64,000 nt of DNA from Xylona heveae TC161 (lineage: Eukaryota; Ascomycota; Xylonomycetes; Xylonales; Xylonaceae): assembly GCF_001619985.1 (NCBI RefSeq), contig NW_017264195.1, positions 2,356,001-2,420,000 on the forward strand, in the 5' to 3' direction. Made by a program: the position numbers and the translations under genes. The notes beneath the pieces are model-generated. The model was given only the letters and a program-made list of their open reading frames with translations, did not search any database and was not told where the DNA came from. Positions 15,660 to 44,473 of this stretch are shown in pieces (positions within the stretch are counted from its first letter, which is position 1; the number at the start of each line of letters is the position of its first letter).

Positions 15660-15731
15660 CGACCTCGACGCGACTCGAACGCGCAATCTTCTGAGCCGAA
15701 ATCAGATGCCTTACCATTAGGCCACGAGGCC
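15660..15731 (-). tRNA. tRNA-Arg (anticodon TCG)
   Basis: Read on the minus strand, the 7-bp acceptor stem pairs GGCCTCG (15731 to 15725) with CGAGGTC (15667 to 15661), and the discriminator base is G at 15660. The D arm region reads TGGCCTAATGGTAAGGCA. The anticodon arm is TCTGA-TTTCGGC-TCAGA, so positions 34-36 are TCG, decoding CGA. The T loop is TTCGAGT. There is no intron. All stems pair, so it looks functional. Box A and box B promoters are the D and T arm sequences themselves. Confidence 0.95.
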
Positions 15732-37447: not shown

Positions 37448-39350
37448 TCACTGGGCGTCAAAATTAGCGAGGCAAAGTTCCAACCCACTGACTATTCGAT
37501 CACAAAAACGTTTCTGGGTCTCGCGATTAGACAGGTCAAAATCTCCATCCCACCAGATGCATGCTTGGACCGCTTTCTGGTATCTAAGGCCTAAGTCAGA
37601 GAAAACTGACCCTGCTTGAACATGATCGAAAGCGGCGAGAAATTCTCTCATTTCGTCGTTGCCATCCTGTTCTCGTCCATTGCCTTTGCTAGAATTTGGA
37701 TCAATCAAAAGCTGCGAACGCCCTATTTCTAGGAGTATCACCCCGAGGCTATATATGTTGGAGCTTCGGAAAATGTTTTCTGTGCCAGCTTGCTCATTGT
37801 GAAATTGATGAAATTTCGCGGAAACATAAGGTGCCCAGTTCTTTTTGTCATCTAGAAACAGCAACACATCTCGGCTGCGCCATTTTTGTTTAATCCAAGG
37901 CGAAGAGTGCAAATAAAGCAAAGAGACGGCGAGAGTGAGGGCAAGTTGCAGACGGTCTCGAACTCTCATGCACGTTGCCTTGTCCTCTGATTGCAGAATG
38001 TCTCGAAGACATCTCTCTTCAAACCGCGGTGCGACTGTTGAAGCCCGATAAAAAAGATACAAGTGCTGATCGTCCACCGGCACATAGCCAAGATATGTCT
38101 CAGACGGCGAAAGTCTTGAGAGACATGTACATAAGTTGTCAATCTTTGCTGTAACTATGTTTGGGTCAGCACAACCACGTGGTACTCTGCAATCTTGGTT
38201 ATCCAAAGAGCGTTTCCTAGAGATGTCTGCAGTATCGAAAACGAATGAAACTCGCTTCCTCATTTTTGATTTTGAGCTGGAAGTTGTTATGACTTCGGCT
38301 TTCGAGGCTGATTTGGGGGCCCTAATAGTAGATACCATTCTCGATTTGACTTCCAACGCTTCGATCATAGATCTCTTGGTCGAATCGTATTCATCAACGT
38401 CCATTCTGCTTTCCATGACGGATTGCGCTTCTTGATAGACGGCCACCAGCCTGAACACAGGCTGAGGGGGTGAATGGTCAACAGTCTGGGAATGCTTTGA
38501 GTTTGTTGGAAGCGACAATCTAAGAGAATCACGCTCGAATTCCAGGCGTAGATTGAATCCATGGCAGTGACATTTGACAGTCTTCGCCAAAGCCGAATGT
38601 AGCCAATTCAGGTGCCGTTGAAAGGCAGATACGGACGACAATTCTATACTGCTTTTTTGATTGACATGGACTGTTTTCGAACGTTGGGGGACAGCTTCCG
38701 TATTCCGACTCTGCAAGATATTGTTGACGATGTGATTGTAATCTTCTATGCGCAGTCGAAGATCGGCTAAGAGTTGTCGCAGGCGGTCTTCGCTACCTGC
38801 GATCCGCCTTTTGGTCATAGGAGAAAGCTTTCGGTAGGCCAAAATGTCGTCTTTTATCCCTTCGCGTTCAATTTGCTTCTGCATTCAATCTGAGCATACT
38901 GATAATTTCTTGGGAACAGATTGCGCTCACCGACTCCGTAAAAGAAATTCCCTTTCCGGAAGAGCTAGTTTTCTCCAGAGCCTTTTGGATATCTCCGAAC
39001 GAATATATGCACAATGCAATTGCGTTCATCGCCGCCTCAAAATTCTCACCAAGATGAGCCCTAAGTTGAGATTCCCACGCAGAATCTTGCCAAACATTTA
39101 AATCTCCGACATTGTCGTCAACAAACATTGCCTGCACTTCCTCCTTGGTTTTAAGACCGGCAAGCAGTTTAATACATTGTTGTATAAACCTCTCTTTCCA
39201 CATAAACAACTCGGTCCGTATCCTTAGGTTGATGCCCTTGATTTGGTTTGTTGAGCGGACAAGGCCCAAAATTGCCTTCTTGCCGCCGAGACATTCTATA
39301 CCAAGACTGACCACAGATATCCCGAGACTCACAGCATCAAGGGCGGACAT
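37448..39350 (-). CDS. HeLo-like helical domain plus degenerate kinase-fold protein (DUF7580 type)
   Basis: Exons 38931-39350 and 37448-38878 (52-nt intron) give 616 residues. The N-terminus SALDAVSLGISVVSLGIECL resembles the helical N-terminal domains (HeLo/HeLo-like) of fungal prion-controlled cell death proteins and NLRs. The C-terminal half (about 330-616) has kinase-like landmarks: LGYVPVDDQHLYLFYRAST, LQLALTLAVSLLYLHSSPWI and NIYSLGVILLEIGRSQ (subdomain IX-like). The catalytic loop position reads WRSRDVLLF and no DFG is seen, so it should be catalytically dead. Proteins with this layout are common and multi-copy in Pezizomycotina and are usually listed as DUF7580 or prion-inhibition related; a role in self/non-self response is inference. 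An in-frame ATG at 39404 would add 18 residues; I prefer 39350 because the family starts with the hydrophobic helix. It shares a 300-bp divergent promoter with the zinc-finger gene. Confidence 0.85.
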
Positions 39351-39650
39351 TTTGCAGCGAAAGATGGACCCCGTTCGATTTTGCTTTTGGATTAAAATAA
39401 ACATGGGCCATCGCTCGCAGCTATTCGTATGCTCCCAATCGATTCATGGTGCTGTGGCTGTATAAAACATCGCCCTCGGCTGCCACAACCCCTGCTGCGC
39501 AGCCTGATGCCCTGGAGGCCGGGGCTCAGCCTCGCTGACCATGGCTGCGGAGTCGCCAACACTGGTACATCACCATTCTGTCGAAGTTTTGTCGAGATTT
39601 TGTTGAGGCAATTCTATCTTTACGGTTTTTTTCGGTATTTTCATGAAAAT
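39351..39650. promoter_or_regulatory. 300-bp bidirectional promoter of the pseudokinase and zinc-finger pair
   Basis: The two divergent starts are only 300 bp apart, so they must share control DNA. T-rich near the zinc-finger gene start. No factor site is claimed. Confidence 0.5.
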
Positions 39651-42278
39651 ATGGCAGACAGTGCCGAGATCGGATTTGCTGGGGACGTCGTCCAAGTTTG
39701 CATTTCAGCATCTTCAAAACTACTAAAAGAAGCCAGACAACACGATGCCGGAAAGTTGATTGAAAAGCAACTGCAAGATGATGTTGACAGGCTCCGCTTG
39801 TGGGCTGACGGCTTCGAGATAAAGGCGGGAGAACTAGACATATTACTTGAGAAAGATGATCAGATGAAGACCGCAGTAATAGCTAATCTGGGTTCTGTGG
39901 CCAGCCTTTTGTCTAAGGGTGAGTTTTCCAAAGATTCTCACACCAAAACTTTACTATCACGCTTTGACGTTAATTACTGGTTTTAGCAACCTGTAGATTC
40001 CTCCAGGACAAGGATTTGAGCATACGTTTGCGAACGTTGGTTGAAAAGGCCATCTTGATCGAGCCCCGAACAGAGCACCTGTTCGACTACAGCTCCGATG
40101 AAGAAGAGCAAGGCCCAGAAAGAGTGCCTGGTGATCTCAGGGCGGGGCAAAATAAAGAGGATGGTGAAGATGAAGTTGATGAAGCTTGGTCAGCGTTTTG
40201 CGAGGACTTTTCTGATTTATGTCAATTGCTTTTCGATTTTGCGCCATTTCTCATGGAATTACAAGAAACCGGAATGATTTCGAATGAACCTCAGGAGGAT
40301 GACACAACAAAACCCGTAACGAGTGGAGAACAGTGTGATCTTCCTCATAAACATCTCAGACGAATGATCATGGACAAGTTCCCAGAAGGCGATCCGCAAC
40401 TGATTGAGAGAATCGCGACCGAATGTTGGACTTTGTATTGCGGACTCAAGGAAGGCTACGCAGAAAGTGAGAAACAAGCGCGAAAGGATGCTCATAGCGA
40501 CAGGGACTCAGGTAACGGTTCGAAATTACAAAGCAAAGCCGTCCGAATAGCCCTTTCAATTTTGAAAGACTTCGAAAATAGCAATGTGGAGAAGAACATA
40601 TGTTTCGATGAGCATTTCCCCCATTCTTACAGTTTCCCGGGAGCTCCCAGTCCTCCTGTTCCATTAAAGATTGGACCTTTGTTTCTTTGCACCATCTGTT
40701 CGAAATTGGTGCCGGTTTTCTCAGATGTTGATATATGGCGGTAAGATGTGCTTACAAACTTCACAATGATCGCATCTAATTTTTACTCTTTCTAGAAGAC
40801 ATATTTTTGATCATATTAGTCCCTACATCTGCACCTTTCAAGATTGCCCAGAGAGGCAGCATCGGTTCAGCTCCTTATCATCCTGGACTGACCACGAGTT
40901 TAACTGCCATCGGAAACCATCCAAATGGCAATGTATATTCTGTTTGCCCTGTTCAGAGCAGTCATACATATATTTTGGCCTAAGAAATTTCGAGGCACAT
41001 CTTGATCTTGTCCATAGGGAATGTTACTCGGCCGAGGACAAATTTTCCATAATGGAAAAATGTAAGAGGAGCCCTGTCAAGAATACTGCCAAGAAAGCAA
41101 CATGTCCATTCTGCGCAACCGAACTTCAAAACAAAAGAAGGATGATCGCAGGACACGTGGGCAGGCATCTAGAAGATATTGCACTTCCAATTGCGAGCAT
41201 TTTTCTCGCGGCAGAGGAATCGGATCGTGAATTTATCGACTCAAATAGTGCTGGGGTCTCTGATAATTTACTGTCCAATCCTGAACATAATCTGCCGTAA
41301 GTGCCCCTCAAACTGGATCAGTGGTACCTATACTGATACTTTGCAGAAAGTGCAATGAAACCGGCTCCTGCCTGTGGGGGCTTTCAAAAGCAGATTGGAA
41401 ACATGTAATTGGGGGTCGGTCGACAGAGAACGAACTTCATAAGCATATGAATCCACAACATGATGCAGATCCGCTATTCCCCGACTTCCCATTCTCGTGC
41501 TTTGAACACGAGTCAAATCAAGAGAGTAGTTACGATCAGCACATGAAGTGGAAATACGATTTGGATTCTGTGCTAGGAATGAACTATGATAATCAACCTC
41601 ATCACTACGCAAAATCTAGAGACTCAGTGGCTCCTTGCAGTTCGACTCCTGACAGAGAACCAGAAGATGGTGGTCCAGAATTTCCGGCGCTTCTCCGTTT
41701 GATGCGGTCGAAAATACATCATTATGCTGGCGAAAGGCCCTCTGAAAACATTTTCGATGAGAAGGTCCAGGAATTGGAGAGTCCTGCATCCAAAATAATA
41801 CAAGAGCAACAACTTCGAGAAGAACTTCAGAAAATCTTTTTTCGTCGGGCGGGATTTTTATTGTCTAAAAACCCGGGACCTTTTACGCCAGAGCACAACA
41901 ACAATTCAAGTTTGGTTGATGAGCCGAGAGTGTCAAGCGAAACTGTCACAAGAGACATTAGTTTCTGCCATATTTGCGAAGAAGTAAATCTTACTCTCCC
42001 AATTATATACTGTAAGATTGGAAAGTGCAGGAAGCGCTGGCACCGCAAGTGTCAAACTGCTCGAGATGTTATATATCAAGAATGTAAGTGCTTGACACCT
42101 ATCTCATATTTAATAATCAGCCTTTTTTAGCTAACGTTTTCTAAAAATTTGAAACTAATGGTTTCCAGACGATGGATATTGTGATTCATGTTTTGAAGAG
42201 GAACTCTTGAGTCTCGTAAGCGAAGATGAAGATGAAGATGAAGATGACAGTGAAGGCGAGGAGGATGATGACGAATAG
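39651..42278 (+). CDS. Multi-C2H2 zinc-finger protein with helical N-terminus and PHD-like C-terminus (AcuF-type)
   Basis: Exons 39651-39918, 39987-40740, 40796-41296, 41347-42083 and 42169-42278 give 789 residues. The N-terminal 90 residues (VVQVCISASSKLLKEARQHD, then LQDDVDRLRLWADGFEIKAG) are helical and resemble the N-terminal regions of fungal STAND-associated C2H2 proteins. Four zinc-finger-like units follow: CTIC with HIFDH (about 323-346), CTFQDC with HEFNCH, CIFC with HLDLVH, and CPFC with HVGRHLEDIAL (about 443-465, the most typical of the AcuF-type family). A PHD/RING-like Cys/His cluster near 715-760 runs CHICEEVNLTLPIIYC, CRKRWHRKC and CDSC. The tail is acidic (EDEDEDEDDSEGEE). 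Function is unknown; a nuclear regulator is likely. Divergent from the pseudokinase gene. Confidence 0.85.
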
Positions 42279-42948
42279 ATGAATACTCTCACGGAGATGG
42301 ACGTGGTAATGACAAGAAAACGACCATCCGCTACATGACCAACACTACAACATGGATTTTCTGATAGTCATGAAATGAAACTCTACATCCTTTTCGCTAT
42401 TGTATCCTAATTATCACGGAATCTTTAAAAGTGAAATTTCATTTAAAGGCGTGCAACATGCCAACAACAACTGGATCAAATTTTCTTGTCCATTGATACA
42501 TGCTATGATTCAGCTGCTTGCCTAAAGCCACCACAAATGATCGAACAGTCTATCCTCCATGGAACTATTGCTGCAGAATTCTCAGCCGACAGAGAAAAAA
42601 TTTGCTCAATAGCTCTATAGCGAACCGCAATCATCGACAAAATGTCAGACAAACAAATTCACGGAATACCAATCTATAGAGGCGCTGCCGCAGACCAAAA
42701 AGACGAATGCGAATGTTACACTGCTACACACCCACATTTTCTTGACAAGCCTCCGTCATGAATCGTACATATTCTACTAATTTTCCGAACTCCAAATCGT
42801 CATATTCAAAAAAATCGTGTATATAGTAGACTTCAATATAGATTTACGGTGCAGTATATCCCAAAGAACCAGCCCATCTAATCCGCCAATCATCCAGTGA
42901 TCTTATACATATGTAATTGTAACCCATCGTGAATGATAGCTAACATGT
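42279..42948. other. Convergent spacer, 0.67 kb
   Basis: 3' flanks of the zinc-finger gene (plus) and the esterase gene (minus). AT-rich; no coding or repeat signal. Confidence 0.55.
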
Positions 42949-44473
42949 CTATTTAGCCAATACTTTGCCACCCTTGCGAACCCCTCCATATACGTGCTCA
43001 AATCGAGGTTCGGTCCCAGGTGCAGGGAGGCTCTTGACAGTCTTGCCCTCCGTCTTCGTTGCAGCAGCGTAACCAAATCTTGTATAGATATATCAACGCC
43101 ATCTAAAAGTAGTTGGCCAGCTTTTCTCAGAAAAGAATGTCCTTCATGAACCCGTAACGTACTGCATAGCAATGTCCTTACCGTGCAATAACAAGATTTC
43201 CTTATCTATAGCCCACCTTGCTTTGACAACGGCCGGCGCATCTCTTGCGGAGCGCTTGATAGCCTCCACAACAAGAAGGTACCCCGGAGCCTTTTGCGCG
43301 CTAAACTTGCATATGTTCGCGTGATCTGCCTGGATAGTTGCGTGGCTCACGCCGCCTTTTAATGGGGTCGCGGAGGCCTCATCCACGACCTGACCGATAC
43401 TTGTTAGTATAACACTTTGATATCATCCATTTCCTCCCGTCCTTTTCTTATGATTAATGAAATGAAAAGGGAAAAAGAATCAAGCAAAAGAAGCGGCCGG
43501 GTAGGGGGAAAAGAAAAGAAACGAAAAGAAGAAAAAGAAGAAAGCACGTACAATTTTCTTCGTAAGTCCAAAATTCATCGGCAACCCCTCATGGAAAAAA
43601 TACATTTGAAAACGATGATCAATCGACTCAAAATAGCGAGTTATCCCTGCAAGCGACTCGCTCTGCCGCTTGAGCGCATTCACCAACCGTGGGGAAGTGT
43701 GAAGGACCGCCTTGGGCACCATCGCGCGGGCGATTGACTCTAGGATTGATCCCCATTTGGCCAAATCGGAGCCAAGGTGCGGCGTGCCCAAGAACAATAT
43801 CCCGTACGTAGAGAGATATATAGAGCGCAGGTGTTCCACGTTCTTTTTCTGGATGGTGGACGAATACGTCAAGGCGGATTTGACTACTAGGCCGCCGAGT
43901 GAGTGGCATATGAATACAATGGGCCGTTGCGTGGCTGCGTCCCCCGCCAGGGACCGGTTGGCACAGAGTTCGGAAACCAAAGTTTCGGCGTGCCTGGGGA
44001 TATTGTCTTTGGATGCGCCGCCTACGCCACTTGTGCCAGTCATGAAGGCTGCCACGTCGGCGTTGTAGCCGTAGGTAAGAATCCGGACTCGCTCGTTTTG
44101 GAGAGAAGACGGGAGAAGATCGGCGGGCCAGAATACGGAGGGGTCCTTTGTGGTCCAGGTCAGATATGGATGGCCATGGAGGCCGTGAACCAGGACGATA
44201 CTATCTGTATTAGCCTCTCATACAGCCAAAGACAGAGGGGGGAGGTAGTGTAAAGACGCACTCAACGAGAGGATCCTCGGCACTGTAAACCTCGCTCAGT
44301 CCGAATCTCTCAACTGTCGCCCCATTTGATGTCTTGACTGAAGCCTGATATCATAGTCAGCATTTTTTATCCTTGCTTTTTTGCTTCTAAATCCCACAAT
44401 CCTACGATTCCACAACCCCCAAGCCCAGAAACTCCGCAACGGCAACGGCAACCCCTTGAAGGAGGATCGGCAT
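42949..44473 (-). CDS. Stand-alone alpha/beta serine esterase (NLR-associated SesB/SERAC1-like)
   Basis: Predicted lipase/esterase of the type found as the N-terminal effector domain of many fungal NOD-like receptors (SesB-like) and in SERAC1. Supported exons: 44267-44344, 43552-44214, 43163-43389, 42949-43078; a first exon near 44400-44478 is needed but its splice joint is unclear, so the start (44473 used here, 44478 possible) is tentative. About 385 residues. Visible: GLSEVYSAEDP, IVLVHGLHGHPYLTWT (oxyanion region), nucleophile elbow CHSLGGLVVKSAL, FLGTPHLGSDLAKWGSI, TKKIVVDEASATPLKGG, and VSHATIQADHANICKF with the probable catalytic His. In NLRs a P-loop NTPase follows RWAIDKE; here the protein instead ends in about 45 lysine/glycine-rich residues (FGYAAATKTEGKTV to GGKVLAK). 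No NB-ARC or NACHT is found in any frame downstream. Confidence 0.78.

What the first reader, a model, noticed from the sequence alone, without database searches (positions are those of the whole stretch)
37448..44473. Three-gene island built from NLR-type parts but without an NLR
Seen: a helical/HeLo-like protein with degenerate kinase fold, a multi-zinc-finger protein with helical N-terminus sharing a 300-bp divergent promoter with it, and a convergent serine esterase. Known: each domain class is recurrent in fungal NOD-like receptor or heterokaryon-incompatibility architectures (HeLo-like executioners, SesB esterases, STAND-associated C2H2 proteins). Inference: the trio may be a split, receptor-less self/non-self or stress-response module. 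The flanking genes are ordinary housekeeping genes, so this looks like an accessory insert.
Basis: partly seen in the sequence, partly recalled or inferred. Interest (0 to 1): 0.72.

Follow-up and report, generated by a model that had tools for sequence, protein, structure and literature searches.

The report
Duplicated fungal sensor–executioner-like gene pair
Two of the three fungal genes (a dead-kinase protein and a zinc-finger protein) form a head-to-head pair that occurs twice in the genome, once with a sensor tail resembling this fungus's own immune receptors, so they look like a small two-gene immune-like or self-recognition module; the third gene, an esterase, is probably only a neighbour.

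Summary
The three genes are real. A (minus, 616 aa) ends in DUF7580, a degenerate kinase fold. B (plus, 789 aa) has C2H2-like fingers. C (minus, about 344 aa) is a SesB-like esterase.

The island is not a trio. A close paralogue of A and one of B lie elsewhere on the contig, again head to head (285 bp apart; 300 here), with shared intron positions, although fourfold sites are near saturation. Neighbours and C were not co-duplicated.

In the second copy, the N-terminal and finger core (B') carries a TPR array instead of B's Cys-rich tail. Its only other matches found in the genome are three NLR-type genes (one passes the NB-ARC cut-off, two are sub-threshold). So "NLR parts without an NLR" holds best for a locus outside the window. 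No NB-ARC or NACHT match lies near the island.

My reading: B/B' is a sensor or adaptor with an exchangeable C-terminus, controlling the MLKL-like pseudokinase A/A'. A cell-death or allorecognition role is inferred, not shown. HeLo membership of A failed the profile tests; both structure models were unusable. Fungal relatives were unavailable.

The parts
37448..39350 (-). Gene A, 616 aa: N-terminal region (exon 1, 39350-38931), middle region, C-terminal DUF7580 pseudokinase (exon 2, 38878-37448); 52-nt intron 38930-38879
   Evidence: gene model; PF24476 E 1.3e-16; kinase PDB hits; paralogue A' at G000:C3:1116696-1118620
39351..39650 (.). 300-bp divergent intergenic region between A and B (285 bp in the second copy)
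   Evidence: no shared motif above shuffles
39651..42278 (+). Gene B, 789 aa, five exons: conserved N-terminal region, acidic linker, four C2H2-like fingers (aa 324-465), then a Cys-rich PHD-like C-terminus not shared with B'
   Evidence: model; fingers; zf-HC5HC2H E 0.005, below cut-off; paralogue B' at G000:C3:1116410-1113491
43144..44473 (-). Gene C, about 344 aa, SesB-like serine esterase, convergent with B; judged a neighbour, not part of the duplicated unit; first exon and 3' end uncertain
   Evidence: model; DUF676 E 2.3e-8; single copy; not co-duplicated; weak resemblance to an NLR-type gene at C7:508290-511923

Best explanation
A and B form a two-gene module. B is a sensor or adaptor: a conserved N-terminal plus C2H2 core with an exchangeable C-terminus (Cys-rich/PHD-like in B, an NLR-type TPR array in B'). 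A is its partner: an N-terminal (probably helical) region held in check by a catalytically dead kinase domain, the plan of MLKL. When the C-terminus of B detects a cue, B binds or releases the pseudokinase face of A, and A's N-terminal helix then acts, most likely on a membrane, to kill or wall off the cell. Shown: both gene pairs, the conserved head-to-head layout, the kinase-related fold (by sequence) without the catalytic Asp, and TPR sharing with NLR-type genes. Inferred: binding between A and B, membrane action, cell death or allorecognition. C is probably an unrelated neighbouring SesB-like lipase.
For: One close paralogue each of A and B was found, adjacent to each other and again divergent; gaps 300 and 285 bp. 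A/A' 41.5% identical over 631 aa, B/B' 37% over 493 aa; shared intron positions in A and in B introns 1-2. Fourfold sites in identical residues differ at 33 of 51 (A) and 32 of 43 (B), near saturation, while proteins and layout are kept. 234 window ORFs searched against C3:1107001-1127000 gave 8 rows, all in A/B or their antisense frames. B' C-terminus: TPR_10 E 5.1e-49; its 8 non-self matches fall in three genes, C1 (NB-ARC 39.5 bits, above cut-off), C16 and C7 (20.9 and 16.2 bits, below it). A+A' profile: 11 of 11 PDB matches at E<=10 are kinases; with the DUF7580-like part of a third gene (C7) added, the 60 best shown of 462 are all kinases or BRAF fusions. The catalytic-loop HRD of kinases aligns with KQK/KQR in A/A' and HRG in the C7 protein. 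The best-conserved 20-residue windows of A/A' are the N-terminal helix (18/20) and this degenerate loop (17/20). The C7 gene, C7:657643-661230, joins HeLo (PF14479, above cut-off) to that DUF7580-like domain.
Against: A's N-terminus matches neither HeLo nor HeLo-like profiles, and its PDB profile search found only a mite allergen (3 chains). Its weak similarity to a HeLo-like ORF (10.8 bits, E 0.01 among 597 ORFs) is two pieces that overlap in the target. Hydropathy of that helix is not exceptional (193 of 500 shuffles as high for A, 139 for A'). Adjacency kept since one old duplication could be inertia of a shared promoter. C2H2 fingers fit a transcription factor as well. The copy in the window (B) has no TPR. 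Two of the three NLR-type TPR genes are below the NB-ARC cut-off. Expression, interaction, polymorphism and fungal homologues are all unknown.
Confidence: 0.45

Rival explanations
1. A and B are a conserved bidirectional gene pair of ordinary regulatory genes (a C2H2 transcription factor-like protein and a pseudokinase scaffold), duplicated once and kept together by the shared promoter; no role in self/non-self.
For: C2H2-like fingers and a sub-threshold PHD-like tail in B; one ancient duplication is enough to give both pairs.
Against: B' has an NLR-type TPR array in place of the tail; pseudokinase behind an N-terminal helix recalls MLKL; a HeLo + DUF7580-like protein exists in the same genome.
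Confidence: 0.35
2. All three genes, C included, are one split receptor-less NLR-like module: lipase, helical pseudokinase and zinc-finger partner.
For: C resembles, weakly, the N-terminal ORFs of an NB-ARC-like TPR gene at C7 (33.9 and 31.2 bits; best of 200 shuffles 28.9), and the TPR of that gene resembles B'.
Against: C is single-copy and absent beside the second A-B pair; B and C share no promoter (convergent, 865 bp between coding ends).
Confidence: 0.1
3. The A-B pair is a selfish or killer pair (toxin-like A, neutralising B), a meiotic driver or toxin-antidote unit.
For: Two linked genes, duplicated as a unit.
Against: Ancient, near-saturated divergence with both copies kept; no repeat borders found for the two flanks tested; nothing tested shows killing.
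Confidence: 0.07

Closest known systems
Fungal HELL/HeLo proteins with a kinase or pseudokinase domain and two- or three-gene cell-death clusters (review PMC12881547, passages seen, section 18)
   Same: N-terminal region plus pseudokinase in A; adjacent partner gene, as in two-gene clusters
   Different: A fails the HeLo/HeLo-like profiles; partner is a C2H2 protein, not an NLR or protease
het-S/nwd2 gene pair (executioner next to its NLR; PMC9815663 and PMC10197012, passages seen)
   Same: effector-like gene next to a receptor-like gene
   Different: no NB domain found in B or B'; no amyloid motif was sought
Mammalian and plant MLKL (four-helix bundle plus pseudokinase; mammalian MLKL as described in PMC12881547)
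   Same: domain order; lost catalytic Asp; top kinase matches are IRAK4 and receptor-like kinases (that these and MLKL belong to the TKL group is recalled)
   Different: no demonstrated homology of the N-terminal part; about 245 residues of other sequence between the two
Head-to-head sensor/helper NLR pairs of plants, and head-to-head paired NLRs in Sordariales (PMC12258605, passages seen)
   Same: divergent pair with possibly split sensing and signalling
   Different: neither A nor B is an NLR
Fungal NB-ARC-TPR NLRs (this genome: C1:3242526-3246274, with a patatin-like upstream ORF by a motif that I recall; C7:508290-511923; C16:67757-70732)
   Same: TPR array of B' 44%, 41% and 28% identical to theirs; such repeats are the sensor part in fungal NLRs (PMC10197012, passage)
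   Different: B' has its own N-terminal plus C2H2 core in place of the NB-ARC
AcuF-like C2H2 fungal family (recalled, from no call)
   Same: B's N-terminus and finger spacing look like it from memory
   Different: no matching model came up in Pfam here

Membership tests
Fungal NLR (STAND receptor) | NB-ARC or NACHT domain in or beside the genes | tested here: not met
   none of 19 NACHT and 7 NB-ARC matches at E<=1 lies in the window; nearest NACHT about 0.95 Mb away
Fungal NLR (STAND receptor) | C-terminal superstructure repeats (WD40, TPR, ANK) in gene B of the window | tested here: not met
   no repeat family in B
Fungal NLR (STAND receptor) | the same repeats in the paralogue B' outside the window | tested here: met
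   TPR_10 E 5.1e-49, related to TPRs of three NLR-type genes
MLKL-like executioner | C-terminal kinase fold | tested here: met
   by sequence: 11 of 11 PDB matches of the A/A' profile are kinases, best E 0.0013; best E 2.8e-7 with the C7 row added; the AlphaFold model is unusable, pLDDT 44
MLKL-like executioner | lost catalytic residues (pseudokinase) | tested here: met
   HRD aligned to KQK/KQR in A/A'
MLKL-like executioner | N-terminal four-helix bundle | tested here: inconclusive
   helices in a model of pLDDT 46; no HeLo/4HB hit in PDB
MLKL-like executioner | membrane targeting and cell killing | not testable with these tools
   needs an expression assay
HeLo (PF14479) / HeLo-like (PF17111, here named PigL_N) | profile match of A's N-terminus | tested here: not met
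   not among the matches, even at E<=10 in the genome searches
DUF7580 (PF24476) | profile match above cut-off | tested here: met
   61.6 bits (A), 68.5 bits (A'); cut-off 27
SesB-like esterase (gene C) | alpha/beta hydrolase with a serine-nucleophile elbow | tested here: met
   DUF676 34.3 bits, cut-off 20.3; CHSLGG in the translation
SesB-like esterase (gene C) | N-terminal domain of an NLR | tested here: not met
   C stands alone; 865 bp to B's end is too short for an NB domain plus repeats, and the one ORF scanned there has no Pfam match
Two-gene regulated cell-death cluster | conserved adjacency of the two genes | tested here: met
   in this genome only: pair found twice head to head; other species not available
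Two-gene regulated cell-death cluster | shared amyloid motif or protease link between partners | not tested
   no motif search run
AcuF-like C2H2 family (gene B) | match to the family's model | not testable with these tools
   family recalled; no such model matched in Pfam here

The most novel reading that the evidence does not exclude
A receptor without a nucleotide-binding switch: in B/B' an N-terminal plus C2H2 core replaces the NB-ARC of a fungal NLR, takes its sensor tail (TPR) from the NLR pool, and directly licenses a partner MLKL-like pseudokinase encoded head to head. It would be a third wiring of fungal cell death, beside NLR-amyloid-HeLo and protease-gasdermin pairs.
Probability: 0.22. 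Interest if true: 0.78.

Novelty: new variant of a known kind. Interest (0 to 1): 0.52.

Why it matters
Fungal cell-death modules are known as NLR-HeLo and protease-gasdermin pairs (passages). A pseudokinase paired with an NLR-tailed zinc-finger protein would show that the sensor repeats of NLRs work without the NB switch, and that an MLKL-like plan is controlled by a dedicated partner gene. The duplicated pair with different tails is a ready natural experiment: same core, two sensors. In my seven searches no listed title or abstract start, and no passage that I read, described this pairing; those searches cover only open-licence PubMed Central papers.

Tried and rejected
AlphaFold of A exon 1 (pLDDT 46) and of the pseudokinase part (pLDDT 44): too poor, so no fold search was run. 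A relatives search in viral contigs and genome contigs found none; neither collection is fungal. PDB profile searches with B's first two exons gave 10 and 12 weak, mixed hits, none a HeLo protein. Shared promoter motif: longest shared word 10, six shared 8-mers, within shuffles (maximum 11 and 7). Hydrophobic N-terminal helix as proof of HeLo: rejected, shuffles reach it often. GC3 of C was computed out of frame by my script and is dropped. The first BLAST script printed no BLAST result and was rerun. A MAFFT alignment of B with B' beyond about residue 490 is not homology (BLAST stops at 484/493). C as a decayed NLR: no room and no remnant seen. C4 finger proteins (weak B hits, E 3.8e-4 and 0.0024): no DUF7580 match lies on C4.
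Full report
What is there. The window is G000:C3:2356001-2420000 of a 24.3 Mb, 17-contig assembly. Gene models: A, minus strand, 39350-38931 plus 38878-37448, 616 aa; B, plus strand, 39651-42278 in five exons, 789 aa; C, minus strand, within 44473-43144, about 344 aa with uncertain ends. A and B diverge from a 300-bp gap; B and C converge. A's two open frames are one gene joined by a 52-nt intron.

Domains. A: DUF7580 E 1.3e-16; C: DUF676 E 2.3e-8; B: nothing above a cut-off, PHD-like zf-HC5HC2H at E 0.005. A regex finds four distinct C..C..H-like fingers in B and three in B'. Whether B's N-terminus is helical was not tested. A profile of A exon 2 and its paralogue gives 11 PDB matches at E<=10, all kinases, best E 0.0013. 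Adding the DUF7580-like part of a third protein (C7) gives 462 matches at E<=10, of which the 60 shown are all kinases or BRAF fusion proteins, best E 2.8e-7; that third row has a more kinase-like loop, so one search is the cleaner test. The HRD of the kinase catalytic loop aligns with KQK/KQR in A/A' and HRG in C7. I therefore call it a pseudokinase. Both AlphaFold models are unusable.

The key result. A search of the own genome with A finds one further A-like gene, at C3:1116693-1118611, and a search with B finds one further B-like gene, at C3:1114790-1116383 (two weak C4 finger matches aside). By family profile a third, more distant DUF7580 match exists at C7. The A-like and B-like genes are next to each other, divergent, 285 bp apart. 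A/A' share 41.5% over 631 aa and B/B' 37% over 493 aa. The intron of A and introns 1 and 2 of B are at the same places. Fourfold sites in identical residues differ at 33 of 51 and 32 of 43, so synonymous change is near saturation. tblastn of 234 open frames of the window against C3:1107001-1127000 gave 8 rows, all inside A/B or their antisense frames. C has no second copy, where two candidates were scored. The duplicated unit is therefore A+B, without C and without the neighbours. One ancient duplication suffices to explain two pairs, so this counts as one event.

Swapped tails. After about residue 490, B and B' are unrelated by BLAST. B is Cys-rich; B' has a TPR array (TPR_10 E 5.1e-49) with 126-bp DNA repeats and a 10-N gap. 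A genome search with part of this array gave 12 matches: 4 in B' itself and 8 in three other genes. These are C1:3242526-3244856 (NB-ARC above cut-off, 39.5 bits), C16:67757-70732 (20.9 bits, below cut-off) and C7:509785-511923 (NB-ARC-like match 16.2 bits, below cut-off, in an ORF just upstream). By my reading, with motifs recalled, the C1 gene has a patatin-like upstream ORF and the C7 gene a SesB-like one. The search scores only the best candidates, so other TPR genes may have been missed.

NLRs near by. NACHT gave 19 matches and NB-ARC 7 at E<=1 in the whole genome, most of the NACHT ones below cut-off; none is in the window and the nearest, C3:1446136, is about 0.95 Mb away.

Gene C. It resembles, weakly, two open frames of the C7 gene (33.9 and 31.2 bits; best of 200 shuffles 28.9); neither frame has a Pfam match at E<=0.1, and the genome search with C did not list them. 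This fits SesB-like domains as NLR parts, but C is not linked to the A-B unit.

Is A's N-terminus HeLo? PF14479 and PF17111 do not match it in protein or genome searches. The A1 profile's best hit among 597 open frames of the fetched loci is a HeLo-like ORF at C10, but at 10.8 bits in two pieces that overlap in the target; those loci were partly chosen for HeLo matches. The same genome does have HeLo joined to a DUF7580-like domain (C7:657643-661230; HeLo 27 bits, above its cut-off of 23.2; DUF7580 24.6 bits, under its cut-off of 27, and 27.6 with its neighbours). Conservation between A and A' peaks at the N-terminal helix (18/20) and the degenerate loop (17/20). Verdict: works-like-MLKL is plausible; HeLo membership is not met.

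Mechanism. I propose B/B' as sensor or adaptor with an exchangeable tail, and A/A' as a pseudokinase-gated effector. Shown: gene pair, layout, fold relation by sequence, TPR sharing. Inferred: binding, gating, membrane action, death. About 45% for this reading; 35% for an ordinary regulatory pair.

Literature. [quoted passage not shown] PMC9815663, PMC10197012, PMC12258605 and PMC5485727 were seen as passages. No search listing that I saw described a C2H2 partner; DUF7580 gave no paper.

Limits. No fungal relatives, no expression, no strain data. Gene models are mine.

Noticed in passing
G000:C7:657643-661230 (L037): A 1196-aa open frame with HeLo (above cut-off), a DUF7580-like domain and, by eye and recall, a protease-like GDSGAW stretch in the next frame downstream: a further pseudokinase architecture in this genome, with a Zn2Cys6-like gene (by eye) as neighbour instead of a B gene.
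   Followed up: partly
   Followed up: no
G000:C7:508290-511923 and C1:3242526-3246274: Probable SesB-like and patatin-like NB-ARC-TPR NLR genes with many similar TPR units.
   Followed up: partly
G000:C3:1114221-1114230 (L035): A 10-N gap inside the TPR array of B', perhaps an assembly gap in near-identical repeats, so the array length is unknown.
   Followed up: no
window 43390-43551: Intron 3 of gene C as modelled is 162 nt with a long pyrimidine-rich stretch, longer than the other introns modelled here (47-85 nt).
   Followed up: no
window 42903-43205, minus: Open frame of 100 aa past the modelled stop of C, with a possible GTACGT donor before that stop; no Pfam match; C may extend.
   Followed up: partly
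window 15660-15731, minus: tRNA-Arg (tcg) in a comparatively AT-rich stretch.
   Followed up: no
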